Source: Burkholderiaceae bacterium (GTDB lineage Bacteria > Pseudomonadota > Gammaproteobacteria > Burkholderiales > Burkholderiaceae_C). From it: a DNA stretch of 34,667 nucleotides. The notes below the pieces were generated by a model. It did not search any database. It had not been told where the DNA came from and saw only the letters and a list, made by a program, of their open reading frames with translations. The DNA is taken from positions 1-34,667 of the forward strand of contig JAMLIT010000039.1 of assembly GCA_023954035.1 (NCBI GenBank), in the 5' to 3' direction. The position numbers and the translations under genes are program-made. Shown piece after piece: positions 12,830 through 33,801 of the stretch. Each line of letters opens with the position of its first letter. The stretch's first letter is position 1.

Positions 12830-12857
12830 GGCGGGGCGGCAGCAGCAAGGGCAGGGC

Positions 12858-15623: not shown

Positions 15624-15638
15624 GGCGGTGCGCCGCGA

Positions 15639-16826: not shown

Positions 16827-17128
16827 AGGCAAGCGGCAGGGTGCAGTTGAATCACAAAGCGTTGCAGGCGGGCGTCCAGGGCGGTCAGCTCGTGCATACC
16901 GAGCTCGCGTCCGCGCGCCCCCTGCGGCAATTGCAGAACGAGATGCCAGTACTCGGCGCCGCGCGCGCACACCTGCGCGGCCAGGTGCACGGGCAGTGTG
17001 CCGATGACGGTGTCGCCGTGCTGCACATCGGCCGGGTCGAGGTGCGGCACATGGCAATCGAAGGCGGGGCCGTGCCGAAGCATCCATTGCAGGGCGCCGG
17101 TGTGGCGGCTGACGAACCAGGTGGTCAC
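16823..17128 (-). CDS. csx16: CRISPR-associated protein Csx16 (VVA1548 family), probable ring nuclease
   Basis: A 101-residue protein with the full Csx16 pattern: TTWFVSRHTGALQW at the start, HLDPADVQHGDTVIGTLPVH in the middle, GAEYWHLVLQLP, and RGRELGMHELTALD near the end. The VVA1548 family is found in type III loci and is thought to degrade cyclic oligoadenylate or otherwise damp signalling. The start is inferred as the GTG at 17128 because known members begin with a short Met-Thr-Thr lead to the FVSRH strand; no clear Shine-Dalgarno is visible. A TTG seven codons upstream is an alternative. It lies 115 bp after the YhaN-like gene and overlaps the Csx2-type gene as ATGA. Confidence 0.88.
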   Translation of the reverse strand: MTTWFVSRHTGALQWMLRHGPAFDCHVPHLDPADVQHGDTVIGTLPVHLAAQVCARGAEYWHLVLQLPQGARGRELGMHELTALDARLQRFVIQLHPAACL

Positions 17129-17243: not shown

Positions 17244-20200
17244 CTACATGCGCACCACGTTGACATCGGGACCCAAGGCGTCGCGTGCCAGGTCGACGAG
17301 GTGCTCATGGTGCGTCAGCACGATCACCTGCTGTTGCCGCGCAAGCTGCCCGAGGACCTTCAGGCCGGCGTGGGTGCGTTGCTCGTCGAAGTTGATGAAC
17401 AGGTCGTCCGCAATGAAAGGCAGTGCCAGGCCTTCGGAGCTTTGCAGTTGCAGCGCCGCCAGGCGCAGCGCCAGGTACAGCTGGTCGCGCGTGCCTTCGC
17501 TCATGCCGGCCACTTCGACCTGCTCGCCCGAGCGGCGGACACCGATCAGCCGGGGTGCGCTGCCTTCACCGTCCACCACCAGGCGGTCAAAAGCGCCCTG
17601 CGTGAGCGTGCGCAAGAGGCTCGACGCCTGGGCAAGCATCGGCCCTTGGCGGGTTTGGCGAAACTTCTCGATGGACCAGCGCAGCAGCCGCGAGGCGTTG
17701 CTGAGCCGCGTGTAGCGCTGCATGGCGTCGGCCATGGTGGCAATGGCCTCTTGCCGCCGCGCTTCGGCCCGCGCGGCGCGGCTGGTGCCGTCGAGCGCGT
17801 CCAGCGCGGCCTTCTGGCTGCCGTGGCGGCTGCTGAGTTCCTCAATCTGCTGCATGAGGGCTTGCGACTGCCGGGCCAGGCTCTGCAGCTCGGCCTGGAC
17901 CACATCGGGGTCGGTGTGGCTGGCTTGCTCGCGCAAGGCGGACTCGGCGTAGCCATCGCTGGCGCGGGCCAGCTCCTGCCCGGTCGCAACGAGCTGCTGC
18001 TCGATCTTGCGGTGCTTGTCCGAGCGCGCGACGGCGCTGGCGAGCGCGTCCAGGTCGTCGCTGCCGGCAGCTGCCACCAAGGGCTGCAGGCTGGCGCCGA
18101 TGGCCTGTTGCTTTTCGTGCGTCGCCTGGTGTTGGGCGTGGGCTTTGTCGAGCCGCTCCTGCAGTTGGGCAGCATGGGTCTGGGCCTGGCGGGCCTCCTC
18201 CAGCCGCTGCGCCAGGGCCCATGCAATGTCCGCGGCCGGCTGTGCAGTGAGATCGGGTGCAAGGCGCGCGGCAAGTGCCTGCGCGCTGCGGGCCAGGCTG
18301 TCGAGGTCGGCCTGCATGGCATCGATGCGCTCGCTGCGCGTGCTGCGGATGGCGCCGAGCAGGCGCTCGATTTCCTCCAGCGTGCCCAGTTCGGTTTCCA
18401 GGGCGTCGGGATCGGCGTCGGCGGCGTAGGCGGCGTCCGCCAGCGCTGCCTGCCACCGGCTGCGCCATTGCTCCCAGGCGGCCTGTGCCGTTTGAGCCGC
18501 GCTTTGCAGGGCGGGAAGCCCGGCTTGTGCGTCGGCGAGCTGCCGGGCCAGCATGTCGCGCTGTCCCTGTGCCTGGTCGCCAGCGTGGATGCGCGTGCGC
18601 GCCTGGCGCAGGCACTCGGCCAGCGGGGGGAGCGCAGCGCGCGCGTCGCTGCCTTCCTGCAGTGCGGTCCACAGCGCGTGGTGCGCCGCGTGGGCGGCGT
18701 CGTCGCTGGCGTTCATGTCCCGCTCCAGCTCGGCGCGCTCGTGCGCCAGCGCCAGCACCGCCTGGCGTTGCTGCAGCCAGGTGGCCGCGAGTTCCAAAGG
18801 CAGCGCCGGCAGGCCACAGGCGCTGGCCAGCGCCTGCCACTGGGCGTCGCAGGCGCGTGCGCGCTCTTGCGCCGCCGCGCTGCGCTCCTGCAGTCGGGCG
18901 ATTTCGAGTTGCAGCTGTTCCAGCCGCTCGGCGCTGGCCTGGCGGTCGGCTTCGTGCTGCGCCCGCTCCAGGCGCGCGTCTGCCAGCTGGTCGGCGTGCG
19001 CCATGCAATGCTCGAGCGCTGCTGCCTCCCGGGACAGGATGTCGGGTTCCGCCTTGATGCTCTGCCACAGGCGGTCGCGCGTCTGCCTGGCGCGCTGCAG
19101 TTGTTCCAGCGACACCGGCTGGAACTTGCGCACCAGCTGCTGCAGCGCCAGGTCGTTCTCGCGCAGGTCTTGCGTCTTGGCGTCGGCTGCCTCCTGCAGG
19201 GACTGCGCCTGCTGGGCCTCGTCGCGCTGGCGCTGCTGCAGGGCGTGCAGGGTGGAGGCTTCGGGAGCCAGCAGATCGGCGAGTGCCTCCGGAGGCTGGC
19301 GCCACACGCCCATGGCGGCCAGGGCAGACGCGATCTTGTCCGCCAGCGCGGCCAACTTGTGCTGTCCGTCGCGCCGGCTTCGGTCGTGGGTGGCAAACGG
19401 CAGCGCCTCGTCCAGCGCCTGTGCCAGGCCTGGGAGCGAAGCCTGGACCGGCAGTGCCTGCAATTGGTGCTCGAGCTGCGCAATCTGCTGCCCTCGCTCG
19501 GCCAATTGGCTGCGGGCCTGGCGCAAATCCTGGTCGATGCCGCCGCGCTGGCGGAGCAGGCGCGCCAGGCGCGAGCGCACGGCGGCCACCGGCAGGCGTT
19601 GGCGCACCGCATCTTCGGTCTCGGCCCCCCAGCCCAGAGCGCGCGCCAGCTCCTGCACGCGCTCCCAGCGGGCGTGGACCTCCTGCGTGCGTTTGGCGAG
19701 GTCTGCGGGGTGTGCGCGAAACTGCAGTCGGCGTTCGTTGAGCTCGGTGATCTCGGCCGCGCGCTTCAGCAGCTCGCGATCGATCGGGACAGCGGCCAGC
19801 TCGATTTGAAGCTGCTCGCTTTCCTGCGCCAGCCGCCGCAGGTCGGCCTGGAGCAGCGCCAGGTCGTGCCGGGCCTGGGCCAGCAAGGCTGCAGCGTCTT
19901 CGCCCAGCAGCGCAACAGCGCCCTGGGCCAGGAGTTCATTGCGTTGCCGGCGTGCGGCGTCCAGCGCTTGCAGCAGCGGCGCCACGCGGCGGATGCGTTC
20001 GAATCGGCTCGCCTGCTGCGCCAGTGCCTGGTGCTGCTGGCGCGCTGCCTCCAGCTGCGCTGCCGTCGCCTCCATCGCTTCGTGCTGGGCCTTCCAGTCC
20101 TTCGCGCGCAGCAGGTGCTGTTTGAGCTCTTTGCCGGCGGACTCGAATTCGTCGCGCGCCTGGTAATAGAGACGGGAGCCTGCCTTGCGCGGCGCCCACA

Positions 20201-20741
20201 GGGCCTCGGCTTCACGCTCCAGGCTTTGCAGGGCCTCGCCCAAATGCTCCATGGCGGCCGCCGACTGGAACAGCAGGCGTCCGATGTCGTCCGACGCGGC
20301 CAGAATGTCGGCGCCGCCCGCGACCAGGCGGTCATGGTCCATGCCATACATGCGCTCGTATGCTTCGCGCTGCAGGTTGGCAAGCCAGGACACCAAGGCA
20401 TTGGCGGGTAGCACGCGGTCGTCGGGTGTACGCAAGGTGTCCTTGTTGCCTTTCGTGCGCTCGAACGCCAGCCTTGCCGGGCCGCCCGCACGTTCCGGCG
20501 TGCTTTGCAGGGTGCCGCCCAGGCGCAGTTCCGGCATGGGGTGCAGGAAGGCCATGGGACTGCGCGTGGGAAAGCCAAACAGCCAGTCGCCGATGGCCTG
20601 GCGAAGGGTGGACTTGCCCGCCTCGTTGGGGCCTACGATCAGGTGGATGTCGGCGCTGTCGGCGCTGCCAGGGACGGGCAGCTGCAAGGACCGGTCGGTG
20701 AATTTGCCGTACCGGATGAGCCGGAAGTCGTTGATGCGCAT
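17244..20741 (-). CDS. SMC-like AAA ATPase, YhaN/SbcC type
   Basis: A 1165-residue ATPase of the Rad50/SbcC superclass. The N-terminal lobe has Walker A GPNEAGKST at 37-45. Long alanine-, glutamine- and glutamate-rich coiled coils fill about residues 170-1000. The C-terminal lobe has the ABC signature MSEGTRDQLYLALRLA (from 1080), Walker B LPFIADDLFINFDEQ (1107-1121) and the switch LTHHEHL. No CxxC zinc hook is obvious at the coil apex, which fits the YhaN branch. It follows the YhaO-like nuclease by 21 bp. Such pairs act on DNA ends or hairpins. Its place inside the type III operon, downstream of cas6, suggests a role in interference, spacer processing or protection from phage DNA. Confidence 0.88.
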   Translation of the reverse strand: MRINDFRLIRYGKFTDRSLQLPVPGSADSADIHLIVGPNEAGKSTLRQAIGDWLFGFPTRSPMAFLHPMPELRLGGTLQSTPERAGGPARLAFERTKGNKDTLRTPDDRVLPANALVSWLANLQREAYERMYGMDHDRLVAGGADILAASDDIGRLLFQSAAAMEHLGEALQSLEREAEALWAPRKAGSRLYYQARDEFESAGKELKQHLLRAKDWKAQHEAMEATAAQLEAARQQHQALAQQASRFERIRRVAPLLQALDAARRQRNELLAQGAVALLGEDAAALLAQARHDLALLQADLRRLAQESEQLQIELAAVPIDRELLKRAAEITELNERRLQFRAHPADLAKRTQEVHARWERVQELARALGWGAETEDAVRQRLPVAAVRSRLARLLRQRGGIDQDLRQARSQLAERGQQIAQLEHQLQALPVQASLPGLAQALDEALPFATHDRSRRDGQHKLAALADKIASALAAMGVWRQPPEALADLLAPEASTLHALQQRQRDEAQQAQSLQEAADAKTQDLRENDLALQQLVRKFQPVSLEQLQRARQTRDRLWQSIKAEPDILSREAAALEHCMAHADQLADARLERAQHEADRQASAERLEQLQLEIARLQERSAAAQERARACDAQWQALASACGLPALPLELAATWLQQRQAVLALAHERAELERDMNASDDAAHAAHHALWTALQEGSDARAALPPLAECLRQARTRIHAGDQAQGQRDMLARQLADAQAGLPALQSAAQTAQAAWEQWRSRWQAALADAAYAADADPDALETELGTLEEIERLLGAIRSTRSERIDAMQADLDSLARSAQALAARLAPDLTAQPAADIAWALAQRLEEARQAQTHAAQLQERLDKAHAQHQATHEKQQAIGASLQPLVAAAGSDDLDALASAVARSDKHRKIEQQLVATGQELARASDGYAESALREQASHTDPDVVQAELQSLARQSQALMQQIEELSSRHGSQKAALDALDGTSRAARAEARRQEAIATMADAMQRYTRLSNASRLLRWSIEKFRQTRQGPMLAQASSLLRTLTQGAFDRLVVDGEGSAPRLIGVRRSGEQVEVAGMSEGTRDQLYLALRLAALQLQSSEGLALPFIADDLFINFDEQRTHAGLKVLGQLARQQQVIVLTHHEHLVDLARDALGPDVNVVRM

Positions 20742-20762
20742 GGGTGATACTGCTCTCTGCGC

Positions 20763-22043
20763 TCAATCCCCGGGGTTCGCTGCCGGGGCCGTGCGGGCGC
20801 TGAGCAGCGCCAGGGCGTCGCTCAGTTGCTTGGCCACTTCCTGCTCGGGCTGCTGGCGCAGCGCGGCAAGGTCCGGCGCCTGCACCAGCACTTCGTGCGG
20901 CAGCTTCTCCAGGCTGGCCTGCCAGCCCGCCTGAAGCGCCTGCACAAAGTCAGCATCCTGCAGTGCGGTGCGCGCCAGGTCCTGCAGTTCGGCCAAGGCG
21001 TGGGCCGCCTCGCCGCTGCGCTGCGCGGCCTGCGCCGGCGGCTGTGTGTCGGCAAGGACTTTTTCGATCCAGAGGCGTTCGGGGTCCAGGGCGAGAGCCT
21101 GGGCGATGACTTCGTGGCGCAGGTGCTGGTCTGCGCGCAAAAGTGCCGTGTGCGCTGGGGACGGACCGACAAAGCGCACGCGCACGGCCAGCGCCATGTG
21201 CGCCGGCGCGTTCTGCACAAGCTGCTCGAGCGCCTGGCCCACCTGGCGCAAGGCGCCGGGCAGGTCCTCCGCCGCGCTGGCGTCGATCTCCAGAAGGTGC
21301 CAGCGCAGGACATCGACCTCGATGCGGTCGACCTGCACGGTGCCGGCCTCGCGCACCGTGACCAGCAAGGCGCCGTGCGCACCGGTTTCACGAATATGGC
21401 GGCCCTGCAGGTTGCCCGGGTAGGCCAGGGTGACATCGCCCGGGCTGACCCAATGCGTGTGCACATGTCCCAGCGCCCAATACTGGTAGCCCTGGGCGAT
21501 CAGCTCGGCCTGCGAGCACGGGGCATAGCTGGCGTGCAGTGCGTGGCCCTGCAGCGCCGTGTGCAGCACGCCGATGTTGAACCAGCCAGGTATGGGGGCG
21601 GGGTAGCCGGGCACCAGGTTGTCCGTGGTGGCCGCCAGTCGGAAGCTTTGGCCGTGCAGTGCGACCTTGTGCGCATCGATGCGAAAGGTTTGCGCGCGCC
21701 GCGCCGAAAAGACGTGCACGTTGTCGGGCAACTGGAGGCTGCGGGTGAGTTCGCTCTCGGCGTCGTGGTTGCCGTAGAGCAGGTACACCGGTATTGCGGC
21801 CTGGCGCAGGCGGCCCATCTGGCGCACGAAAAACAGGCCGGTGTGGTAGTCCTTCCAGTCGCCGTCGTACAGGTCGCCGGCAAGGACCATGAAGTCGACC
21901 TCCTCCTCGATGGCGCGGTCGACCAAGCGGCCGAGTGCGTCGCGCGTGGCCGTGCGCAGACGCTCGGTAGGCGCATCGGGATAGGCCGACAGGCCCACGA
22001 GCGGACTGTCAAGGTGGATGTCGGCGGCGTGGATGAATTTCAT
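20763..22043 (-). CDS. Metallophosphoesterase DNA exonuclease, YhaO/SbcD (Mre11) type
   Basis: A 426-residue calcineurin-like nuclease. Metal-binding motifs appear in order: AADIHLDSP (residues 6-14), VLAGDLYDGDW, YLLYGNHD, and YWALGHVHTH. These match Mre11/SbcD and the YhaO branch, nucleases that work with an SMC-like ATPase, here the next gene. The ATG at 22043 overlaps the cas6 stop as ATGA, so its translation is coupled to cas6. The C-terminal 150 residues form a capping region rich in Ala, Gln and Leu. An upstream in-frame extension of 24 codons lies inside cas6 and is not needed. Confidence 0.9.
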   Translation of the reverse strand: MKFIHAADIHLDSPLVGLSAYPDAPTERLRTATRDALGRLVDRAIEEEVDFMVLAGDLYDGDWKDYHTGLFFVRQMGRLRQAAIPVYLLYGNHDAESELTRSLQLPDNVHVFSARRAQTFRIDAHKVALHGQSFRLAATTDNLVPGYPAPIPGWFNIGVLHTALQGHALHASYAPCSQAELIAQGYQYWALGHVHTHWVSPGDVTLAYPGNLQGRHIRETGAHGALLVTVREAGTVQVDRIEVDVLRWHLLEIDASAAEDLPGALRQVGQALEQLVQNAPAHMALAVRVRFVGPSPAHTALLRADQHLRHEVIAQALALDPERLWIEKVLADTQPPAQAAQRSGEAAHALAELQDLARTALQDADFVQALQAGWQASLEKLPHEVLVQAPDLAALRQQPEQEVAKQLSDALALLSARTAPAANPGD

Positions 22044-23041
22044 GTCGCAGTGAGGCGGTAGCCGCCCAGCCCCATCGTGGCGTTCTTGCCTACGTGGAGC
22101 CATTGGCCCAGCCAAAGCCAGGGCCAGATGCTGCTGAGCACTTCTTTTGTCCCTTGCAGTCGCCAGTCACCGACAACACCGCCCAGGGTCATTTCTTGCT
22201 GTTGTCGGCTGCTGTAGCGTACCCAGTCGAACCAGCGCAGTTCCCGCTCGTCACGAAGCGCTAGCGCTTGTGCTGCAGTCGCGGGAACCCGTTCGCCCCA
22301 GTCGGGCTGGTTTGCGTGAAATTCCAGTACCAGTGCTGCGCGGCGGGAGACCGCGCTGATCAAGCTGTGCGCAGTGAGCTGCTGCGGTCGCAACGGCCGG
22401 CCCTGATGCTGCAGGCGCAGCGGGGTGTGGATGCGCAAGAGCAACTCGTTCTTGCCTTCTGGCCATGGCGGGATTTGCAGGCTGGCGGTGTGGGACTGAA
22501 TGCGGGGTGTGTCCGCGCTCCAGACCGGATGCAACTGGTTGTCCTCGTCCTGCCATTGCACCTGCTCGAGCGCAAGACGGCTTCGCATCCGCGTCAATCC
22601 TTGCGCCAAAGCGCGCTGCCAAGCGAGGAGGACAAGGGGCAACTGCTCGAGGGCATGGCCAGCGAGGACGAAGTGAAACGCCAATTCTTGACCGGGTGCC
22701 AACCAGCGCTCCCCGCCTTGCTGATCTTTGCCCAGGTGCGGCGGTGGTGGTTCCACCACGTAGGCGTTGGGAATCGCACTGAAACGCTGCAATGCATGCT
22801 GTTGCGGCGCCGGTGCTTCAAAGATGCGGGTATATGGGCAGGTTTCGCGCAGCGGGCAGTCGGTGCAGCTGGGCTGGCGCGTCATGCAGGCCAAGTTCCG
22901 CAATGCGGCGCCAAACTGGCCGCGCAGCAGTGAACCCGCGTACGGCGGAAGTTGCAGCGCGTCGAGTGCGCGAGCGCGGATGCGGTACCGGGCAATGGGT
23001 AGCGCCCGAGAGGAGTCCAGGCAATGACTGTTGCTGTTCAT
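22040..23041 (-). CDS. cas6: Pre-crRNA processing endoribonuclease Cas6 (PF10040-type RAMP)
   Basis: A 333-residue Cas6 that cuts the repeat transcript to give crRNAs with the 8-nt ATTAAGAC handle. The N-terminal RAMP half has LPPYAGSLLRGQFGAALRN and then a cysteine cluster (C52, C59, C62, C68 in CTDCPLRETCPYTRIFE) typical for this Cas6 subgroup and likely metal-binding. The C-terminus ends in the glycine-rich RNA-binding loop MGLGGYRL. The start overlaps the cad1 stop as ATGA and its stop overlaps the YhaO-like start the same way. It is the only Cas6 in the window and should serve the array at 8993-12350. Confidence 0.9.
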   Translation of the reverse strand: MNSNSHCLDSSRALPIARYRIRARALDALQLPPYAGSLLRGQFGAALRNLACMTRQPSCTDCPLRETCPYTRIFEAPAPQQHALQRFSAIPNAYVVEPPPPHLGKDQQGGERWLAPGQELAFHFVLAGHALEQLPLVLLAWQRALAQGLTRMRSRLALEQVQWQDEDNQLHPVWSADTPRIQSHTASLQIPPWPEGKNELLLRIHTPLRLQHQGRPLRPQQLTAHSLISAVSRRAALVLEFHANQPDWGERVPATAAQALALRDERELRWFDWVRYSSRQQQEMTLGGVVGDWRLQGTKEVLSSIWPWLWLGQWLHVGKNATMGLGGYRLTAT

Positions 23042-25224
23042 GGGGTGCGCGTGGTCAAAAGGCGGTAAATGCGCTGGTCGGCACGGTTGAGCAAGCCTTC
23101 GCGCTCAGCGCTGGGCACAAAGCCGTGCACAAATGCCTGCCGCATCAGGGCCAGGCTTTCCCAAAGGGTGATGCCGCCATCGGTCATGCGCGCGGCAGCC
23201 AAGTATTCGTCTGCCAGTGTGGTGCGCGATATGCCGGGATTGTCGGTGCAGATCGTGGCGGGCAAGCCTTCGGCGATGAAGCGGCGCAGCGGGTAGCGCG
23301 GGCAGTCGGCGCTACTTGGGTGCGCAGGGTCGAAAAATCCAACTACTTCCCGATTGGAGCTGGGGCACAGTTCGAGGCAGATGCCCCGGTCGCGAAAGCG
23401 TGTGGCGAGATGGGGATGGTCTGCGATGCTCAAGCCGTGGCCGATGCGGTCGGCGTGCAGGTGGTAGGCAGCCTGCCAGATGTTTTCCGCACTTTCGCCT
23501 TCACCGGCGTGGATGGTCAGCGGCAAGCAGTCGGCGAAGGCCGGCACAAAGGCGGGCGCGACTTCGTCGGGGCGCAGCGTGCCCTCATCGCCAGCCAGGT
23601 CGAGCCCTAGCAGGAAGTTTTCCAGTTCGCGCCGGGCCAGGACAGCAGCCCGGACGACGTGGTGCATGGCGTCACCCTGGCGGCGGTCAAGGATCCACAG
23701 AAAGCCGATGCGCGGCGCGCCGGCCGCAGCGGACTGGCCGGGTGCGACTTGTGCGCCTGCCTTGCGTAGGGCGTCTCGCAGTGCGTGGAGGAAAGCGGCG
23801 GGCTCGCTCGGGCGGTATTTGTGCGGGCTGCCGCGCAATTCCAGGTAATCCAGGCCCTCGGCCTGCGCCTGCTCGACGATGGCCTGGGCATAGGGGGCTA
23901 TCGCGCCAGGATGCGTCAGAAGCGCTGAGCCGCTGAGTTCGCCAGGCCGCTCGTAGGCGGAAAATCCATGTCGGTGGCGGTGTTTGAGCGCCACGCGCGG
24001 CTCGGTGACGCTGAAGAGATGGCGTTGTAGTTGGGCATCACTGGCGTGCAGCAGCAGTGCAGCGCAGAGCTCGGCCCGGTGCGGCGAGCGCAAGGAGTCT
24101 GGCCAAGTCCAGTTCCAGTCCTGCTTGCATAGCAAATGGTGTATGTCCTGTAAGCGCTGTAGCCTGTTTTGACAGGAAATTTCATCCCAGATCGCTTGCG
24201 CTACTTTGCGCTGGGCATCCAGCGCCAGGCAGCCCCCGATGTGGCGGTGCAGGTCGGCCTTGGGCAGAGTGCGCAGCCATGGGGCATGGCTCGACGACAG
24301 AAACGTAGTGCGCAGCCGCTCGATCTGGGCCGGTGGCAGGCGGTACAAGCTGCGCCAGTTCTCGTGGCGTTCGCTGGCGGCCACGCTGGCGAGAAAGTTG
24401 CCCAGAAGCTGACTGCTTTGGCGTTGGCGCTCGCCCAAGGCACGGTGCAGCTCGTCGCCCCCAGGCGGCAGTGGCCAGGCCAGTGCGTCGACTTGCCTTC
24501 CGGCCGAACGCGCCAGGGGGAGCGCAAAGTGCTGGCTGGTGATGGTGCGCCCGCCAAGCTCCAGGTCGAGCAGCTCACTGCGTTCGCCAGAGCCGGCGAT
24601 CAGGGGCGTGATGGCACTGGCCACATCCGCAGGTAAGGGTGCGCTGAATAGGGCTGGCTGGCGGGCGCGCTCTTGCTCGCTGCGTGCAAGCAGGGCAGGG
24701 TGCAGGGGGTCTGGCCCCACCACGTGCAGCCAGGCGTGTGCACCAAACAGGGAGCCTGCGGTTTGCAGGTCGGCGCTCATGGTTTTGCGCCCGCCTGCCA
24801 GGGACAGCAGCAGCTGGCCGTGCGGGCCCGTGTGCTCGCTGGCCAGCAGGGTCACGCGCATGGTCAGCTCGCGGATGTGGTCGCATTCGGCTTGGCTGGC
24901 AAGCTGGTCGGTCCCGGCAGCAGCCCAGACGCGCAGGGGCAGCGGCGCCCCCAATGCCTGCCACCAAGCGTGCAGCCAGCGCAGGCTGGATTGCGTTTGC
25001 GCGCCTTCTGTGGTGCAAATCCACAGCTCGTCGGGGGCGCGCAGCCCGTGCTGCTGGCGCAGCGCATCGAGTGCGGCGCGGTGCGGGTGGTGGGCGTACA
25101 GATCGACGATGCCGGGCGCCAGCCAACCGATGATTTCAGGGATCACGGCCCAGCTGGCACCCAGCGTGCACAGCAAGATGGTGCGGTGGCCCGCCGGTGG
25201 CGGTGAACGGGTCCAAAGCGTCAT
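23038..25224 (-). CDS. cad1: CRISPR-associated adenosine deaminase Cad1 (CARF-ADA fusion)
   Basis: A 728-residue two-domain effector. The N-terminal CARF domain has ILLCTLGASWAVIPEI at 16-31 and the ligand motif SLAGGRKTM at 141-149. From about residue 315 comes an adenosine deaminase fold with all zinc and catalytic residues: ADLHRHIGG (His326, His328), LTIHAGEGES (His572, Glu575), DRIGHG (His596) and CTDNPGIS (Asp661), plus GLDLAGDE. From the literature as I recall it, Cad1/CAAD is activated by cyclic tetra- or hexa-adenylate and converts ATP to ITP, stopping growth. The ATG at 25224 overlaps the Nudix stop as ATGA and its stop overlaps cas6 likewise. A longer upstream frame is a shadow of the Nudix gene. 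Confidence 0.93.
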   Translation of the reverse strand: MTLWTRSPPPAGHRTILLCTLGASWAVIPEIIGWLAPGIVDLYAHHPHRAALDALRQQHGLRAPDELWICTTEGAQTQSSLRWLHAWWQALGAPLPLRVWAAAGTDQLASQAECDHIRELTMRVTLLASEHTGPHGQLLLSLAGGRKTMSADLQTAGSLFGAHAWLHVVGPDPLHPALLARSEQERARQPALFSAPLPADVASAITPLIAGSGERSELLDLELGGRTITSQHFALPLARSAGRQVDALAWPLPPGGDELHRALGERQRQSSQLLGNFLASVAASERHENWRSLYRLPPAQIERLRTTFLSSSHAPWLRTLPKADLHRHIGGCLALDAQRKVAQAIWDEISCQNRLQRLQDIHHLLCKQDWNWTWPDSLRSPHRAELCAALLLHASDAQLQRHLFSVTEPRVALKHRHRHGFSAYERPGELSGSALLTHPGAIAPYAQAIVEQAQAEGLDYLELRGSPHKYRPSEPAAFLHALRDALRKAGAQVAPGQSAAAGAPRIGFLWILDRRQGDAMHHVVRAAVLARRELENFLLGLDLAGDEGTLRPDEVAPAFVPAFADCLPLTIHAGEGESAENIWQAAYHLHADRIGHGLSIADHPHLATRFRDRGICLELCPSSNREVVGFFDPAHPSSADCPRYPLRRFIAEGLPATICTDNPGISRTTLADEYLAAARMTDGGITLWESLALMRQAFVHGFVPSAEREGLLNRADQRIYRLLTTRTP

Positions 25225-25847
25225 GAAATGGAAGTTGGGACGGGACAGTGCGCGGCCTTGGTGAGCAAGTGGACGGCCGCCAGTTGGCTCCACAGTTCGT
25301 AGCGCGGGTCGGTTGCCACGTTTGCCAGCGGCACGAATCCCAGGGCGTTCAGCGCTTCGCCGGGGCGGGGTGCAGGAGCTTGAGCAGCGATCCATTGGGC
25401 GCTGTAGAGCAAGCCCAGGTGCACGCGGCCAACCGCACTGTGCCCTTCGTAGACGGCAGCCAAAAGGCGCAGGTCGGTCAGGGCGTCGGCCTGCACGCCC
25501 AGTTCCTCCAGCACTTCGCGCAGCAGCGCACGGCGCAGGGTGGCAGCGGGGTCGAGTCTGCCCTGTGCGTCGTGACAGGCGTCGCCGGCATCGACATGGC
25601 CGCCCACGCCAACGCTGCATCGCCCGCGCAGCCGCGCGTCGCCACCGCTGCGCGCATAACTCCAGGCACGGCCTTGCGCATCACGCAGCACCAGGTAAGT
25701 AATGGGCTGCAAGAGGGTTTCGTCCGATTCGGCCATAGCGCGTCGGTGCCAGCTTGCGGCACGCAAAAAATCCAATCCATTGGGCAGCGGCCAGCAACCG
25801 GCTGCGGGCAAGGACGGGAAATGGGTGCGCGCAAGGGCGAGAATCAT
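25221..25847 (-). CDS. Nudix hydrolase coupled to cad1
   Basis: A 208-residue Nudix protein. The loop-helix-loop motif is visible as GGHVDAGD (82-89) followed, after an insertion of about 20 residues, by the core REVLEELGV (110-118), which binds magnesium for pyrophosphate hydrolysis. The insertion makes the box longer than the canonical 23 residues. Its stop overlaps the cad1 start as ATGA. Published work on Cad1/CAAD describes a neighbouring Nudix enzyme turning ITP into IMP, so this is the likely second step of a nucleotide-depletion pathway. It follows csm5 after 96 bp. The ATG at 25847 has no strong ribosome site; a start further inside at Met38 would still keep the domain. Confidence 0.85.
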   Translation of the reverse strand: MILALARTHFPSLPAAGCWPLPNGLDFLRAASWHRRAMAESDETLLQPITYLVLRDAQGRAWSYARSGGDARLRGRCSVGVGGHVDAGDACHDAQGRLDPAATLRRALLREVLEELGVQADALTDLRLLAAVYEGHSAVGRVHLGLLYSAQWIAAQAPAPRPGEALNALGFVPLANVATDPRYELWSQLAAVHLLTKAAHCPVPTSIS

Positions 25848-25943: not shown

Positions 25944-27686
25944 TCAGGACGTGCCGCGCAAGTCGGCAAGTTTGAGTTTTCTGCGCTGTTCCTTGGCGTC
26001 CCAGCCGGCGATGACGGTGGGCAGGGTGGCTTGCAGCATGTCGGCCAGGGCGACGCGGTCGGTGGCGCTCCAGCCGGCGCTTTCCAGTGCGGTTTTCACC
26101 AGCCGTGTGGCGTCTTGGTACAGGCCGGGCCTGTTGGCATCAGCGGCCTGTTTCTTGAAGTTGCCGTGGGGTGGCAGCTTGGCTGCCCAGTCCGCACAGG
26201 CTCGGCGTAGGGTTTCGATGGCTTGCTGCTGCGTGGACATGGCGGCCATGGTCCGGGCGCGTTCTTCCTCTTGCTGGCGCTCGGCTGCCTGTTTGGCGGC
26301 TTTGGCCTCTGCCTCCACTTGCAGCCGGTTTTTTTCCGCCTCGGCTTTTTTGCGCTCTTGATCGAGTTGGGCGCGGTGTTCCGCCATGCTGGGGCGACCT
26401 TGGTTTTGCTGCTGGCACCAGGCCTTGAGTTCTGCGCAGTCGGCTTGGGGATCAATTTCCACCACCGCCCAGCCGAATGGAAGCAGATGCTTCTGGTCGT
26501 TTTCGTTTTGCGCGGCCAGCCAGACGGTTTTGGTGGTGCTTTCAAATGTGGGCGGGCTGCCTTTGGCACCCATGATTTTGATGCTGGCCACGCCTTCACC
26601 GGTCAGCGTCTTGCTGTCGGCGCTGCCGTAGCGGCCGATGCGCACCAGGAAGGCGTCGCCCGTTTCCAGTTGTTTGCCCAGGCTGCTGTGATGGGAGAGC
26701 AGCAGGGAAATGCTGTTTTTCCAGCTGGGATGGACAAGGCCGCGGCCATCGAGTACCGCCAGTTCGCGGCGCAGGCGTTGCTGGTGGTACTGATTGGATT
26801 GCCGCGCCAGGCGGCGCAGATCCACTGCGCCCTGGGGGTTGAGCTGCCTAGCCTGCGGCGTGAGGGGATTGTTGTTGCGATTGACGGCTCCGGTTTGCTT
26901 GAGCAAGGCAGGCAGCGTGACATCGGCGGCAAACAGGCGGTATTGGCCGGGCAGCACGCAGTCCTTGCGGGCGGCAATGCCCTTGGGCTGCACTTCTTGG
27001 CCGTCCTTCATCAGTTCGCGTTTTTTGCGGTTGACGGCAAACAGCACTTCGCGCTCGGGCTCCCGAATGGGCATCAGGTCGGCCACCTTGAGCAAACGCA
27101 GCGGGCTGGTATGGAAGTCACCTAGCTGGCCGCGCTGGTCGTCGCCCCACAGGAGGCGCTTTTCCATGGCGGCGCTGGATCTGGCTTCGCCGTTGCGCTT
27201 GAACTCCACGTCATGCGGCTTGCGGCCGGCGTTCAGATCGTCCAGCCACGCCGTGCGCAGCGCGCCTTTGAAGCTGGTGCCGGGGATGAAGGGCTGTTGC
27301 AGGGCACCCGTGTAGACATGGCGTTCGATTTCCAGCTTGTTGAAGACCTGGTTGCCGCTGGCTTCCACATTGGCGGCTTTGCCGATGCGCTGCTCGTACA
27401 TGCGCGCGACGCCGCTGCACACCGGCATGACGACATGGGCGTGGGGCTTGAAGGCATCCGCGTTGTCGCGGAAGAAGCGCTGGATGCCGGGCAGTGAGCC
27501 ACGCCGCGCCACGTCCATGAGCTTGCCGCGTTGCACGTCGTTGAGCGCAGCGCGGCTTGGGTCAAAGCCGTAGAGCAGGCCGTCTTCGATGACATAGTTG
27601 GTCGGCTCGAAGTCTTCGCCGCAACCGATGTGAAGGGGGGCCAGGGGCGTCAAATGCAGGCGATGGATGCTTAAAAACGGACTCAT
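25944..27686 (-). CDS. csm5: Type III-A effector subunit Csm5
   Basis: A 580-residue RAMP protein that caps the 3' end of the crRNA in the Csm complex. The N-terminal Cas7-like fold has LHLTPLAPLHIGCGEDFEP (10-28) and the glycine-rich motif PFIPGTSFKGALRTAW. Residues about 410-500 form a charged Glu/Lys/Ala/Gln coiled coil, followed by a compact C-terminal region; this makes it longer than many Csm5 proteins (about 350-450). The ATG overlaps the csm4 stop as ATGA. It ends the core complex genes; the accessory block begins 96 bp later. Confidence 0.92.
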   Translation of the reverse strand: MSPFLSIHRLHLTPLAPLHIGCGEDFEPTNYVIEDGLLYGFDPSRAALNDVQRGKLMDVARRGSLPGIQRFFRDNADAFKPHAHVVMPVCSGVARMYEQRIGKAANVEASGNQVFNKLEIERHVYTGALQQPFIPGTSFKGALRTAWLDDLNAGRKPHDVEFKRNGEARSSAAMEKRLLWGDDQRGQLGDFHTSPLRLLKVADLMPIREPEREVLFAVNRKKRELMKDGQEVQPKGIAARKDCVLPGQYRLFAADVTLPALLKQTGAVNRNNNPLTPQARQLNPQGAVDLRRLARQSNQYHQQRLRRELAVLDGRGLVHPSWKNSISLLLSHHSSLGKQLETGDAFLVRIGRYGSADSKTLTGEGVASIKIMGAKGSPPTFESTTKTVWLAAQNENDQKHLLPFGWAVVEIDPQADCAELKAWCQQQNQGRPSMAEHRAQLDQERKKAEAEKNRLQVEAEAKAAKQAAERQQEEERARTMAAMSTQQQAIETLRRACADWAAKLPPHGNFKKQAADANRPGLYQDATRLVKTALESAGWSATDRVALADMLQATLPTVIAGWDAKEQRRKLKLADLRGTS

Positions 27687-28660
27687 ACGCGCTCCAATAT
27701 TGCGCCAGACGCTATGGTTTCCGGAATGCAGATGGGCACGACCGGGGCGTAACCCTGGTGCACCGTCTCGGGCATGGCGAGCGATACGGGCGCGGCCTGC
27801 CCGCCCAGGCCTTGGCCGATGAAGCCGTGGCGGGGGTCGATTTGCTCGGGCCAGAACACGCTACCGGCCCTGGCCAGCAGCACCGGGCGTTTGAAGGCTT
27901 GGCCGCTTTGCACCGCCACGTCGCCGTGGCGGCCGAAGCGGGTGAGGCTGTTCCAGTGGCTGCGCACCGGGCAAAAGCCCAGCCCTTGCGGGGCACAGGG
28001 GCCCAGCGTCAACCAGGCGTTGGCACTGCCCTGGCTGGGGGTGGGCCAGGTGATGGCTTGTGCATCACCGGTCAGTTCGAACTTGCCCAGGCCGATGCTG
28101 GCATCGCGCCCATAGCCGTGCGCGCCGATGTAGGCGAAGGCCGCTTGCATATGCGCCAGAGACAGGCGCGATTCATCAAGTACCACCACGATATCCAGCA
28201 GGCTGCCGGGCGCAAGCCAGGTCTGCGCCATGGTGTAGGGGGCAAACATGCCTGTGCCGGTAGTACCGGTCTGGCGGTTGATGGTGTTGTGCGGCTGGAC
28301 GTGGACTTCGGCCTTGCCCAGATCGGCATCGCTGGCCGCCAATTGCTGCCAGGTCGATAGCTGTTCACGCATGCTGGCAGTGGGCAACCAGCGCTTTTTT
28401 TTCAGAACCTTGCGGTCACTGCCGAGGCTGGTTTGCCAGGCGCTGCTGGGCAGGCCAGGCAACGGGATATGGCCGTGCGGCAGAGCGTCCGAGACGACGG
28501 CAAAGGGCCGGCCCAGGGTGTAGCCATGCAGCAGCGCAGTCAGCGCCTCATTGCCCAGTTGGTAGCGCAGCGTCCAGCACAGCTGCCCCAGCAGGGTATC
28601 GCCCGCCAGCGGTGTGCCGAGAGCCGATAGGGGTTTGACGGTAAAGCGGTAGGTCTGCAT
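27683..28660 (-). CDS. csm4: Type III-A effector subunit Csm4 (Cas5 group)
   Basis: A 325-residue RAMP protein that holds the crRNA 5' handle and contacts Cas10. The family start is visible as YRFTVKPLSALGTPLAGDTL, where the substrate-fold start leads to GQLCWTL, and the glycine-rich loop GRDASIGLGKFEL lies near residue 190. I chose the ATG at 28660, which starts MQTYRF; a TTG at 28678 overlapping the csm3 stop would add six residues. The stop overlaps csm5 as ATGA. Its place after csm3 and before csm5 is the standard III-A order. Confidence 0.9.
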   Translation of the reverse strand: MQTYRFTVKPLSALGTPLAGDTLLGQLCWTLRYQLGNEALTALLHGYTLGRPFAVVSDALPHGHIPLPGLPSSAWQTSLGSDRKVLKKKRWLPTASMREQLSTWQQLAASDADLGKAEVHVQPHNTINRQTGTTGTGMFAPYTMAQTWLAPGSLLDIVVVLDESRLSLAHMQAAFAYIGAHGYGRDASIGLGKFELTGDAQAITWPTPSQGSANAWLTLGPCAPQGLGFCPVRSHWNSLTRFGRHGDVAVQSGQAFKRPVLLARAGSVFWPEQIDPRHGFIGQGLGGQAAPVSLAMPETVHQGYAPVVPICIPETIASGAILERV

Positions 28661-28674
28661 GCCGTGACCCACTA

Positions 28675-29415
28675 TCAAGCTGTGGCCCTGGCAAAGGGCT
28701 GCACCTTGTCAAATTCCGCTTGTTTGTCTTCGCCGTCAATAGCCAGGCCGACAAATTTCACCTTGCCGTAGCCGCGCGAGCCGCTACCGCCCAGGCTGTC
28801 GAGTTCCAGCAGTTTGAGTCCTTGCAGCACGGTGTTCAGCAGTTCGTTGCCGTCGCCTGCCAGGCGTTTGACGGAGAGGCGGAAATCAAAGCGGGCACCA
28901 GCGGGAACGCGCTCGGTCTGGCGCGGATGCTCGGCCACGCCGCTGATACGGTTGATGCGGTTTTCGCTTTTCACTTCGGTGAGCATCTGGTTGTTCCCCC
29001 GAATGTCCTGCTCCCAGCAGGCTTGCAGGTTGCAGTCCCAGAACGACAGGCGGCTGGGGCCGATTTCTCTCATTTCCTGGCCCAGCTTGGCGTCGCCGCT
29101 GATGCCAAACAGTTGCAGGATGCGCTTGACCTCGGCCTGCACGCCTGCGCTGGACGCTTCCAGGTCCTTGTAGCCCAGGGGCTCTTCCTTGACGGCGCCG
29201 CTGCGCCATTCGAGCAGGCTTCGCATCTTTCCTTTGAGGCTGGAGCCGGGGATGTAGGGCGCCTGGGTGTGCGGATGGCGCATGACGGTGTTGTCGACGC
29301 CGCCGATGCGCATTTCGCTGTCGCCCGCGCCAATGCGCAGGCCGCTGACCAGCTCCAGCGTGGCGGTGATGGTGGTGATGGCGGTCAACTGGGGCTGTTG
29401 TGCGGCTTGGGTCAT
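28675..29415 (-). CDS. csm3: Type III-A backbone subunit Csm3 (Cas7), target RNA nuclease
   Basis: A 246-residue Cas7-family protein that forms the crRNA filament and cuts target RNA at 6-nt intervals. The motif GLRIGAGDSEMRIGGVDN carries Asp41, which aligns by eye with the catalytic aspartate (Asp33) of Streptococcus Csm3. PYIPGSSLKGKMRSLLEW and the C-terminal LDSLGGSGSRGYGKVKF are strongly conserved. RNA cleavage should therefore be intact. A good ribosome site (CAGGAGA at 29424-29430) precedes the ATG by eight bases, and csm2 ends 3 bp upstream. Confidence 0.96.
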   Translation of the reverse strand: MTQAAQQPQLTAITTITATLELVSGLRIGAGDSEMRIGGVDNTVMRHPHTQAPYIPGSSLKGKMRSLLEWRSGAVKEEPLGYKDLEASSAGVQAEVKRILQLFGISGDAKLGQEMREIGPSRLSFWDCNLQACWEQDIRGNNQMLTEVKSENRINRISGVAEHPRQTERVPAGARFDFRLSVKRLAGDGNELLNTVLQGLKLLELDSLGGSGSRGYGKVKFVGLAIDGEDKQAEFDKVQPFARATA

Positions 29416-29418
29416 GGC

Positions 29419-29880
29419 TTATTTCTCCTGGGCTTTGTAGAAGCCCATGAAGGCTTCCATGAACAATTTGGCGTGACGCAAACTGTCGGCGTCGCTGATC
29501 TGGCGGATGACGTGGGCGAACAGGGTTTCAAAGCACTCGTCCACATGCTCGCGCCCCTTGGCGTAGGCCGCTTTGGCGACCAGCATCTGGATGAAGGGAG
29601 CGACTTCCTGGTATTTGGCTTGGCGCTCGGCGGGCGTACGCTCAAATTGCACGCGCTCGTACCACATCACCAGCTCATCGTAGAAACGGCGCAGCTGGGT
29701 GGATTTGTTCTTTTTACCAGCGCCTGCTTCGGCGATGGTGCGCGCTTTGTCTTGCGCTATGTCAGAGAACAAGGTGGGCGGGATGTTGGTGAGCCGAATG
29801 TCTGCCGTGGAAATCGTGATGCTGGGTGCATCCTGGCGCGGCCGGTCCGTCCAGCCCTGATTGCGTTGGTAGCTTGCCAT
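29419..29880 (-). CDS. csm2: Type III-A small subunit Csm2 (Cas11)
   Basis: A 153-residue helical protein that lines the target RNA side of the Csm complex. Typical features are the stretch TQLRRFYDELVMWYERV (residues 61-77) and a C-terminal helix pair ending LFMEAFMGFYKAQEK. The N-terminal 30 residues are polar and probably flexible. It starts 9 bp after the cas10 stop behind a strong ribosome site and is followed by csm3 after 3 bp. Confidence 0.93.
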   Translation of the reverse strand: MASYQRNQGWTDRPRQDAPSITISTADIRLTNIPPTLFSDIAQDKARTIAEAGAGKKNKSTQLRRFYDELVMWYERVQFERTPAERQAKYQEVAPFIQMLVAKAAYAKGREHVDECFETLFAHVIRQISDADSLRHAKLFMEAFMGFYKAQEK

Positions 29881-29883
29881 GGT

Positions 29884-29891
29884 CTCTCCTT
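29884..29891 (-). promoter_or_regulatory. Strong ribosome binding site for csm2, overlapping the cas10 stop
   Basis: AAGGAGAG on the minus strand overlaps the last bases of cas10 and lies three to four bases before the csm2 ATG. It may let csm2 and the genes after it be translated well even if cas10 is now poorly translated. Confidence 0.65.
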
Positions 29892-32535
29892 AACGCTGGC
29901 GGTAAAAGTGGTTGAAAAGCGGGATGCGGAACTTGCTGCCCAATTGCTCCAGCCCCTGCTCGCCCAACACCTGGGCCAGGCGCGTTTGCGCCTGGTGACG
30001 AAGCTGGGTCTGCATTTGGGGGTCTGCATGCTTGAGCTTGTCCACCACATAGCGGCGCGTGCGGTAGGCAAAGCGGCTGCGCCACATGGGATGCTCGGGG
30101 TTTTTTGTGTCTTGCTTCAGGTCGATCAGGTGCAGCAGGCCATAGATGTAGCTGGTGGACAAGTCATAGTCCGCGCGGACGTCCTCCAGCTGCTGCTGCA
30201 AAGACTCGATGGCTTTCCACTCTGACCAGCGCACGCGTTCGCCATACACCACCAGGGCGTTTTTGCGTTGGGCGGGGTCGGTGTGGTTGCTGCCCTTGGC
30301 TTCCTCCAGCGCGTCCTCTGCCTGTGCAACCAGGGTTTGCATGGGCAGGCCAGGCTTGGTCATGCACAGCCCGGCGGAGAAGGTGATGCCGGGGTTGCCT
30401 GCCACGTAGGTTCTGAAGGCCTCGGCCATGCGGGCGGCCAGCTTTTGCGTGCTGTGCCAGGGGCCGATGAGGAAGAAGTCGTCGCCGCCTGCAAACACGG
30501 TATAGGTGTTCGGAAACTCCTTGGTGCACAACGCCGGCAGATAGACGGCAAAGAAGGCGTTCAGCTGGCGCGACAGCGTCGCCATCTTGGCAAAGGTGGG
30601 CGCCTGCAGGCCTTGCTGGAACAGCATGCCAAGGTTGTCCACGTCGCCCTTGAGCGTCATAAGTGCCACTTGGCCCTGCCAGTTGCTGGCATTGCTGGTG
30701 TCTTCACGCTTGGGCTGGCGGTCTTCGCAGGCGATGTGGTTGAAGGTTTTTCCGGCTCCTTGCTGCACATCATCGACATCGACACTACCTTCTATGCCTA
30801 GGTATTTGGCCTGGGTTTGCAGGTCGAGGCTGGTAAAGCGGGGAACGTAGGCATTGATGTAGCGGCGGGCGTAACCGTGCCACAGCATCTCATCCAGACT
30901 GGTGGGCAGGCTGAAATCCCAGCAGCGTGCCAGGCTGGCGTTGGCCGCCAGGTTGCCAAACTTTCCGCTTTGGTCCTCATCCGCGGTAAAGGCGACGGTG
31001 TAGCCAAAGATGGGTACTTCCAGTTGTGTGACGCTGGAGCCGACGGCAATGGCAGTGCGGTCACGCAGCACCAGCAGCCGGTCCTGGCGTGACAGGCCTT
31101 TGCCGATGGCGATCTGGTCGCGTGAGAGGGCGGCACTGGCCTGGCCGGCGTCTTCTTTGTCGGCAGGCAAGCGGTCGTTGTAGCGGCACACGCCGTACGG
31201 GTAATGAATCGCAAACACGGCGGGGGCGCTGCTGGCTGTGAGATCAAAACGGTGCAGCTTGGCCCTTTCCAGGTCGGCAAACAGTTCATTCATCAATGCT
31301 TGAAATCGGTGGCTGGGCTGTTTGTCCAGAAAATCATTGCCGCTTGCGGCCTTGCTCGCCAGGCCCAGGCCGGCCAGGCCAAAGCTGTGCTGCAAGAACC
31401 AGTCGTTGAGCTCCTGGCGCACTGCGGCCAGTTGCTTGCGTGCCTGCGCGGTGTTAGGCGCCACGATGAGGAATTTGCCAGCGCCGTTGGTGATCTGGCT
31501 GGTGGGCGGCAGTTGTAGGGCGTCCAGCACCTTGAGTGCGGCCAGTTCGGTGAACAGAGACACTTGGAATGAGCGTCCGCGCAGCAGCCGGGCGGCATCG
31601 CGCCGAGTCTGACCGCCATCGGCAAAAATGAAATCTTGAATGCCGAAGAAGTCACCCTGGATGAGCAGGAATTTTTGTTCGTCCCAGTCCCGGCGCTCTT
31701 TGAGCCGCTGCGCAGCGGCTGCATCGGTCTGGCCTTCTGCCTCGTGCCAGCGCCACAGAGCGACGGCCAGGGCGGCGGTGGTTTTGCTGTGGTCGTAGAG
31801 CGATACCTCAGGCTTGCTCCCAAAGGCAGTGGCCGACGGGATGGCGTGGGTGAAGGTGAGCCAGGCAGTATCGAAATGGTCCAGCCAAAGGGGCCACTGG
31901 CCGCGGTGCGTGGCAGGAATTGCCTGCAATGCCTCAAGAAACTGCTGCCACAGCTGGGCATATTCCTGCTGCGCCGGACCGTCCTGCCCGGGTTCGCAGC
32001 TCTCGCGAGGCTGCGGAAAAATGGCCTGTGGGGACAAAGCCTTGAGCGGGTAGCGCCACTTCAGGGTCTTGAGAGTGGGGCTCTGCGCTTGCCCGTCCAA
32101 CTGCACTTGCTCAAGCAGCGAAAGAAGGCGTGCCTGATAGTGGTTGCGCCCGGTGGAGGTGTTTTCATTGCCCTCCTTCGCGGCGTTGTATTTCTCGAAG
32201 GCCTCGCGTTCAAAGCCGCTCGCCAAGCGGTCCGCGGTGGCAATGATCCACTGCAGGAACGTTTCCGGCCTGTGGTGTGCCGCCGCAGCGTTGACGAGCG
32301 AGTCCGTGGTCCTTGGATCGCCCGCTGGGCCCGATCCGGCCTGCAATTGCGTGCGGTTGATGAACGGCGCCATGGCCCCGTGAATCAAGTTCGGCGCGTG
32401 CCGTTCAATGTGATCAAAGGCCATCGCGGTGTAAGCCGCGTGCACATGACTGTGGTATCCGCCCTGGCCACCAGTCGCTGTGCTGTGCCAGGGACAGTAC
32501 TGGGTTTTGTGTGCATCTAGGGAAACGCTGATCAA
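29890..32535 (-). CDS. cas10: Cas10/Csm1, 5'-truncated by an IS element (HD motif lost, GGDD kept)
   Basis: The large subunit of the Csm complex; it makes cyclic oligoadenylates and, if its HD domain works, cuts DNA. The open frame is 881 codons from a TTG at 32535 inside the IS end. Native sequence starts only at LDAHKTQYCPWH. Relatives carry about 40 more residues before this point, including the LLHDxGK motif with the catalytic His-Asp pair, which is absent here. Other HD-region pieces remain (HSHVHAAY, AAAAHHRPETFLQWIIATADR). The palm domain keeps LLIQGDFFGIQDF, LKGDVDNLG and the cyclase motif FAGGDDFF (GGDD at 683-686). No usable ribosome site is evident at the TTG. The native promoter is also gone. 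Confidence 0.93.
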   Translation of the reverse strand: MISVSLDAHKTQYCPWHSTATGGQGGYHSHVHAAYTAMAFDHIERHAPNLIHGAMAPFINRTQLQAGSGPAGDPRTTDSLVNAAAAHHRPETFLQWIIATADRLASGFEREAFEKYNAAKEGNENTSTGRNHYQARLLSLLEQVQLDGQAQSPTLKTLKWRYPLKALSPQAIFPQPRESCEPGQDGPAQQEYAQLWQQFLEALQAIPATHRGQWPLWLDHFDTAWLTFTHAIPSATAFGSKPEVSLYDHSKTTAALAVALWRWHEAEGQTDAAAAQRLKERRDWDEQKFLLIQGDFFGIQDFIFADGGQTRRDAARLLRGRSFQVSLFTELAALKVLDALQLPPTSQITNGAGKFLIVAPNTAQARKQLAAVRQELNDWFLQHSFGLAGLGLASKAASGNDFLDKQPSHRFQALMNELFADLERAKLHRFDLTASSAPAVFAIHYPYGVCRYNDRLPADKEDAGQASAALSRDQIAIGKGLSRQDRLLVLRDRTAIAVGSSVTQLEVPIFGYTVAFTADEDQSGKFGNLAANASLARCWDFSLPTSLDEMLWHGYARRYINAYVPRFTSLDLQTQAKYLGIEGSVDVDDVQQGAGKTFNHIACEDRQPKREDTSNASNWQGQVALMTLKGDVDNLGMLFQQGLQAPTFAKMATLSRQLNAFFAVYLPALCTKEFPNTYTVFAGGDDFFLIGPWHSTQKLAARMAEAFRTYVAGNPGITFSAGLCMTKPGLPMQTLVAQAEDALEEAKGSNHTDPAQRKNALVVYGERVRWSEWKAIESLQQQLEDVRADYDLSTSYIYGLLHLIDLKQDTKNPEHPMWRSRFAYRTRRYVVDKLKHADPQMQTQLRHQAQTRLAQVLGEQGLEQLGSKFRIPLFNHFYRQR

Positions 32536-32536
32536 T
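32521..32536. repeat. Left terminal inverted repeat of the IS5 element
   Basis: GGAAACGCTGATCAAT matches the inverted right end in 14 of 16 bases. The TTG from which the cas10 frame is open lies in this repeat. Confidence 0.85.
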
Positions 32537-32618
32537 CACCGCTTCGCGCAGGCCAACATGTGATGGCTTTTGGATTTCACGATGCGATCTGATTGAAGTC
32601 TGTTTTTGTCGATTTCAA

Positions 32619-32632
32619 GGGCCAGAAGGCCC
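32619..32632. terminator. Possible weak stem-loop inside the IS, downstream of the transposase
   Basis: GGGCC-AGAA-GGCCC is a perfect 5-bp stem with a 4-nt loop. On the plus strand it is followed by GGTTTTCT, which resembles a weak terminator in that direction. On the minus strand, the direction of the transposase and cas10, only TTGAAAT follows, so it may not stop read-through into cas10. Confidence 0.3.
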
Positions 32633-32664
32633 GGTTTTCTCCCCTATCGGGGCCGATCTCCCGT

Positions 32665-33672: not shown

Positions 33673-33742
33673 GATGTTTCGTCTCGGGTCGCCCTGTGAC
33701 TATCAACGCTTCAGTTCGCTTCGCCGTAGACGCGCTGCGTCG

Positions 33743-33758
33743 AATAAATCAGCGTTTC
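33743..33758. repeat. Right terminal inverted repeat of the IS5 element
   Basis: Read on the minus strand this is GGAAACGCTGATTTAT, matching the left end at 14 of 16 positions. The flank TTAG follows at 33759-33762. Confidence 0.85.
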
Positions 33759-33801
33759 CTTAGCAACAATCACGTTATTTTTAGGTTGCTCTCTTTTTGC
33801 G

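What the first reader, a model, noticed from the sequence alone, without database searches (positions are those of the whole stretch)
23038..25847. Cad1 plus Nudix: a coupled ATP-to-ITP-to-IMP shutdown module in a type III-A locus
The CARF-adenosine deaminase protein keeps every zinc and catalytic residue of the deaminase (His326, His328, His572, Glu575, His596, Asp661) and the CARF motif SLAGGRKTM. Its start overlaps the stop of a Nudix hydrolase gene as ATGA. As I recall the published work, Cad1/CAAD turns ATP into ITP after binding a cyclic adenylate, and a Nudix enzyme then makes IMP. The overlap here argues that both steps are produced in a fixed ratio. This looks like a betaproteobacterial member of a recently described defence type.
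Basis: partly seen in the sequence, partly recalled or inferred. Interest (0 to 1): 0.9.

Follow-up and report, generated by a model that had tools for sequence, protein, structure and literature searches.

The report
Cad1 deaminase with its dedicated Nudix
A bacterial CRISPR defence locus carries a known kind of alarm-activated enzyme that should convert ATP to ITP, next to a partner hydrolase that in the genomes sampled was found only beside this enzyme but was not found beside about half of its relatives; in this copy the CRISPR sensor gene has lost its start to a jumping element.

Summary
In detail: a 728-aa CARF-adenosine deaminase (Cad1/CAAD), all named residues at the stated numbers, starts inside the stop of a Nudix gene (ATGA) in a type III-A csm operon. 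G330 and N662 are Cad1-type substitutions, and the 13 best fold matches are solved Cad1-type structures. The overlap alone says little (5 of 13 junctions in this operon have one), but comparison supports a partnership: 7 of 7 genomes found with this Nudix subfamily carry it directly beside Cad1, reading frames overlapping by 4 or 8 nt, in two gene orders, in III-A and III-B contexts. It is optional: in 7 of 14 Cad1 genomes none was found at the locus, including two of the same genus as one that has it. A housekeeping ITPase gene (RdgB/HAM1) is also present. By-catch: an IS5-like element has removed about the first 40 residues of Cas10 with its HD motif, so this copy may be impaired or signalling-only. 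Verdict: new member of a known kind.

The parts
23038..25224 (-). cad1: CARF5-adenosine deaminase effector, 728 aa
25221..25847 (-). Nudix hydrolase of the Tm1382 type, 208 aa; Cad1-linked subfamily
25221..25224 (-). 4-nt ATGA overlap of nudix stop and cad1 start
29890..32535 (-). cas10/csm1; the open reading begins in the IS end (TTG), about the first 40 residues of relatives incl. HD motif are missing; GGDD kept (residue 683 of this reading)
29419..29880 (-). csm2
28675..29415 (-). csm3
27683..28678 (-). csm4 (TTG start is the longest reading; not certain)
25944..27686 (-). csm5
22040..23041 (-). cas6, 4-nt overlap with cad1
20763..22043 (-). Mre11/SbcD-like metallophosphoesterase
17244..20741 (-). 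Rad50-like AAA_27 ATPase next to the above
15639..16832 (-). Csx1-type CARF-HEPN protein (start approximate)
14514..15623 (-). Cas_NE0113 CARF protein, NCBIfam 'ring nuclease Csm6'; possible cOA off-switch (inference)
12858..13880 (-). cas1
12488..12880 (-). probable cas2 (judged from position, length and the look of the sequence; no family search made)
8993..12350 (.). CRISPR array, 49 repeats of 36 nt (48 exact)
32521..33759 (-). IS5-like element (family name from recall), 12-nt inverted ends with differing 4-mers outside them; DDE transposase 32665-33672

Best explanation
This is a Cad1/CAAD effector with its accessory Nudix in a type III-A CRISPR operon. When Csm binds phage RNA, Cas10 makes cyclic oligoadenylate; it binds the CARF domain of a Cad1 hexamer, which then deaminates ATP to ITP (inferred from family, residues and fold). 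The Nudix then most likely hydrolyses ITP to IMP and pyrophosphate, which pulls the reaction on and drains the ATP pool instead of only accumulating ITP (inferred from exclusive linkage and from recalled work). The Nudix is a dedicated but dispensable add-on: Cad1 loci exist with and without it.
Against: No activity was tested. The nearest solved Nudix, Tm1382, has no substrate in its title and no paper in the held library. Close Cad1 relatives lack the Nudix at the locus, and the genome has an RdgB/HAM1 ITPase gene, so this Nudix is not needed for Cad1 to act. Cas10 lacks its expected start and HD motif, so this copy may be weakly expressed or dead.
Confidence: 0.68

Rival explanations
1. The Nudix is mainly an antidote: it clears ITP/dITP so that host DNA and RNA are not poisoned and the cell can recover, making the arrest reversible rather than deeper.
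For: Same chemistry predicted; the Cad1 authors propose hexamer dissociation as a way to limit ITP toxicity (discussion), and the operon has a protein that NCBIfam calls a ring nuclease.
Against: A housekeeping RdgB/HAM1 gene already exists in this genome, and half of the Cad1 genomes have no such Nudix at the locus.
Confidence: 0.2
2. The Nudix acts on another substrate: linear cOA products, diadenosine or other nucleotides, or capped RNA, as a signal regulator.
For: Closest solved relative Tm1382 has no stated substrate; its fold neighbours include yfcD, DR0079, IPP isomerase and RppH. The GX5E half of the Nudix box is altered.
Against: In the draws it was found only at Cad1; other type III effectors were not surveyed for it as such.
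Confidence: 0.12
3. The locus is a decaying remnant: the IS removed the cas10 start, so no signal is made and Cad1-Nudix is silent. (This can be true together with the family reading.)
For: IS ends lie at 32521-32532 and 33748-33759 and the cas10 reading begins in the IS end; the missing segment was not found elsewhere in the genome (no positive control).
Against: GGDD and the other genes are open; the transposase reads towards cas10, so read-through transcription is possible, and in-frame alternative starts exist (inference). The junction comes from a draft assembly.
Confidence: 0.3

Closest known systems
Cad1 (Baca et al. 2024, PMC11645235; discussion section and search passages seen)
   Same: CARF-ADA architecture, active-site residues, type III-A context, fold
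   Different: The word Nudix does not occur in its main text; there a rise of ITP is the readout
TaqCad1 (EMBO J 2025, PMC12669630; sections 7-9 and search passages seen)
   Same: Gly and Asn substitutions (G264, N549 there; G330, N662 here), CARF lysine, a co-expressed Csx1
   Different: The word Nudix does not occur in its main text; the CARF part is very divergent in sequence
CAAD plus Nudix (Li et al., Science 2025, 10.1126/science.adr0393; not read, reference entry only; its Nudix step is my recall)
   Same: As recalled: ATP to ITP by CAAD, then ITP to IMP by a Nudix hydrolase
   Different: Could not compare sequences or gene order; paper not held
Tm1382 (PDB 3E57), putative Nudix hydrolase
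   Different: No CRISPR link tested; substrate not stated
RADAR RdrB
   Different: No CARF, different assembly; ranks far below Cad1

Membership tests
Cad1/CAAD | CARF domain fused to adenosine deaminase domain | tested here: met
Cad1/CAAD | CARF motif II with the cOA-binding lysine | tested here: met
   SLAGGRKTM 141-149; aligned with LAGGYKT of solved Cad1; lysine function
Cad1/CAAD | Deaminase metal and catalytic residues | tested here: met
   H326, H328, H572, E575, H596, D661
Cad1/CAAD | Gly and Asn in place of the two ADA aspartates | tested here: met
   G330, N662; meaning
Cad1/CAAD | Overall fold | tested here: met
Cad1/CAAD | cA4/cA6-dependent ATP deamination as hexamer | not testable with these tools
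   needs protein
Nudix hydrolase superfamily | Nudix domain and fold | tested here: met
   PF00293 above cut-off; fold
Nudix hydrolase superfamily | Full canonical box GX5EX7REUXEEXGU (recalled) | tested here: not met
   REVLEELG kept; D89 where E is expected and a longer spacer; a D and a longer spacer are also in Tm1382 and in the other Cad1-linked members
Nudix hydrolase superfamily | ITP/dITP hydrolysis to the monophosphate | not testable with these tools
   needs assay
Type III-A CRISPR-Cas | cas10/csm1 with csm2-csm5 | tested here: met
   TIGR02578 664.5 bits and csm2-5; csm5 just under its NCBIfam cut-off, 37.6 against 38.3, but Csm5 in PADLOC
Type III-A CRISPR-Cas | Cas10 with its N-terminal HD motif | tested here: not met
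   LHD[LI]GK present in L001 and L007, absent in the window reading

The most novel reading that the evidence does not exclude
The Cad1-linked branch of the Tm1382-type Nudix family is a dedicated switch gene of Cad1: its presence or absence sets whether a type III response poisons the cell with ITP or drains ATP through to IMP. It has been gained or lost repeatedly, even within one genus, giving a ready natural experiment.
Probability: 0.4. Interest if true: 0.62.

Novelty: new member of a known kind. Interest (0 to 1): 0.44.

Why it matters
It turns a gene-overlap argument into comparative evidence that a specific Nudix subfamily belongs to Cad1, and shows that it is optional. That makes a question testable: is ITP the weapon, or an intermediate on the way to ATP depletion? 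Closely related loci with and without the Nudix (G254 against G1113 and G1215, one genus; Cad1 73% and 68% identical) can be compared directly.

Tried and rejected
Plasmid search with Cad1: no match at 1e-40. Viral contigs: 21 Nudix relatives at 24-41% identity (best segment); the window's Cad1 and cas proteins had no match in the 21 loci (up to 6 kb each side). So the wide Nudix family is not Cad1-specific, only the closer subfamily at the thresholds used. Nudix tree, 22 rows (7 Cad1-linked, 15 of the 21 viral): the Cad1-linked rows cluster (2 changes; 1 of 500 shuffles as low), but two long-branched viral rows fall in the same weak, unresolved group, and only 31% of bootstrap trees make them one side of a branch. 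First Cad1 tree (15 rows) had 2 starred branches of 12; a second (15 rows), with L059, L060, L069, L070, L071 added and the incomplete rows L002, L004, L006, L007, L025 dropped, had 7 of 12. L022 was left out of the Cad1 trees because its Cad1 frame is broken, L028 because only 121 residues of Cad1 are on the contig, L072 because its match falls in two blocks; L059 and L060 kept some residues before the likely start. On the second tree the Nudix state is not significantly clustered (3 changes, 58 of 500 shuffles as low). L025 (G653), L004 and L007 are cut at the Cad1 5' side, so absence of the Nudix there is not proved; L070 has little 3' flank. Zinc was rejected as unsupported for Cad1. The HD-segment search in the own genome was empty but had no positive control. 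Literature: the 8 searches listed no held paper that I could see to describe the Cad1-Nudix pair; most subscription papers are not held, so this does not show that it is unpublished. Of PMC13148439, PMC12948488, PMC11229360, PMC12715507, PMC13187428 and PMC12825302 I saw search passages only.
Full report
Observation. Cad1 (23038-25224, minus) and Nudix (25221-25847, minus) are real open genes that share the bases ATGA. Family searches place the first as CARF5-ADA (708 bits) and the second in Nudix (28.3 bits).

Context. The minus strand reads cas10, csm2, csm3, csm4, csm5, nudix, cad1, cas6, Mre11-like, Rad50-like, Csx1 CARF-HEPN, a Cas_NE0113 CARF protein, cas1, a probable cas2, then a 49-repeat array. 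It is type III-A by csm1-csm5. Of 13 junctions, 5 are 4-nt overlaps, one is a 23-nt overlap and 7 are gaps, with 96 nt before the Nudix (the csm4 and csx1 starts are uncertain). The Nudix-Cad1 overlap is therefore ordinary for this operon and cannot alone carry the 'fixed ratio' argument.

Linkage. In 369 genomes of the class the Nudix (E <= 1e-6) is in 5: G000, G147, G254, G355 and G191; all five sit directly at Cad1, G191 with Cad1 cut by the contig end. In 195 genomes of the order of G254 the Nudix profile (E <= 1e-15) is in 3, G254, G1197 and G1221, all at Cad1. In 3 genomes of the order of G147 it is in the 2 already known; in 398 genomes of the phylum only in the window's own. Draws overlap, so a total of distinct genomes is not given, and more distant Nudix proteins would be missed at these thresholds. 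Thus 7 of 7 distinct Nudix genomes are Cad1-adjacent. Own genome left out, the class table is 4 of 5 Cad1 genomes against 0 of 363 others (p 6.7e-9) if G191, whose Cad1 was found only through the Nudix, is counted as Cad1-positive; 4.9e-7 if it is dropped and 1.9e-6 if it is counted against. The second table is 3 of 7 against 0 of 188, p 2.9e-5. These tables take, and 72 and 77, to be the same draws, as their sizes and handles suggest.

Two arrangements. Nudix then Cad1, with ATGA overlap, in the window and G254; Cad1 then Nudix in G147 and G355 (GTGA, start inferred) and in G191, G1197 and G1221 (8-nt overlap): all 7 pairs overlap. That overlaps persist in both orders fits translational coupling. 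The gene after the Nudix is a weak Cmr1 match in G191, G355 and G147 (E 1.6e-4 to 1.2e-5), and G1197 has Cas10b-type and Cmr4 genes, so these are III-B or III-B-like. The subtype of G254 was not settled; at G1221 the window's cas proteins found nothing in the 18 kb fetched and the one neighbour searched had no PADLOC hit, so that pair is not shown to lie in a CRISPR locus.

Optional. Cad1 at E <= 1e-40 was found in 13 distinct genomes, 14 with G191; 7 have the Nudix, and in 7 none was found at the locus (G249, G528, G653, G1113, G1176, G1202, G1215), G653 being cut at the relevant end. For G1113, G1176, G1202 and G1215 and, by inference from the same draw, G249 the whole-genome search was also empty; for G528 and G653 I cannot say. 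None of the 9 named loci L001-L009 shows it in the DNA held; wide flanks on both sides exist for L001, L003, L005, L008 and L009, the others are near contig ends. G1113 and G1215 are of the same genus as G254, with Cad1 73% and 68% identical to it, and have csx1 directly before cad1 where G254 has the Nudix. The Cad1 tree needs at least 3 changes of Nudix state on well-supported branches. Whether these are gains or losses is open.

Mechanism. Shown by sequence: GGDD cyclase motif in Cas10, intact Cad1 sites, intact Nudix REXXEE, linkage in the sample. Inferred: cOA, then Cad1, then ITP; then Nudix, then IMP. The own genome also has an RdgB/HAM1 gene (150.1 bits, cut-off 145.35), so the Nudix would add capacity or speed rather than a missing function. 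The recalled Science paper is in the reference lists of held papers, but I saw only its reference entry.

A problem for this copy. An IS5-like element lies at the start of cas10: inverted arms 32517-32532 and 33748-33763, 94% complementary, each with four flanking bases, CTAG and TTAG, that differ. The reading frame of cas10 begins within the IS end; aligned with L001 and L007, about 40 N-terminal residues with LHD[LI]GK are missing. They were not found elsewhere in the genome (no positive control). The IS is present once. The sel1-type gene on the far side also appears to lack its start. This suggests a rearrangement rather than a simple insertion; a draft-assembly artefact is possible. If real, the Cas10 DNase is probably lost and the native start and promoter are gone, while cOA synthesis could remain.

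Conclusion. A Cad1-Nudix locus whose Cad1 is nearest to Betaproteobacteria and Burkholderiales records (6 of the 9 named loci, the others being two 'proteobacterium' records and Nitrincola; the window's own taxonomy was not determined): a new member of a recently described kind, with new comparative evidence for a dedicated but optional Nudix and with a damaged cas10.

Noticed in passing
window 32517-33763 and 29890-32535: IS5-like element at the 5' end of cas10: start and HD motif are missing; flanking 4-mers CTAG/TTAG differ.
   Followed up: yes
window 33760-34413: Sel1-repeat gene on the far side of the IS also seems to lack its start.
   Followed up: partly
window 17244-22043: Mre11/Rad50-like pair inside the operon between cas6 and csx1; tblastn found no relative of either in the DNA held of L001-L009 (E 1e-4).
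   Followed up: no
window 14514-16832 and 23038-25224: Three CARF proteins in one locus: Cad1, Csx1-HEPN and a Cas_NE0113 protein that NCBIfam calls a ring nuclease.
   Followed up: partly
L023 and L028 (G147, G191): Two Cad1s of the Cad1-then-Nudix kind have TDD instead of TDN, like ordinary adenosine deaminase; in TaqCad1 that change abolished ATP deamination. L059 and L060 have TDN.
   Followed up: partly
L032-L052 (viral contigs): Distant Tm1382-type Nudix proteins: 21 viral-contig loci in one scan; their role there is unknown.
   Followed up: partly
own genome G000:C3:79143-80036: A second, separate cas1 in the genome, in a 629-aa open frame.
   Followed up: no
L072 (G1176): Cad1 match falls in two blocks with about 200 nt between them.
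   Followed up: no
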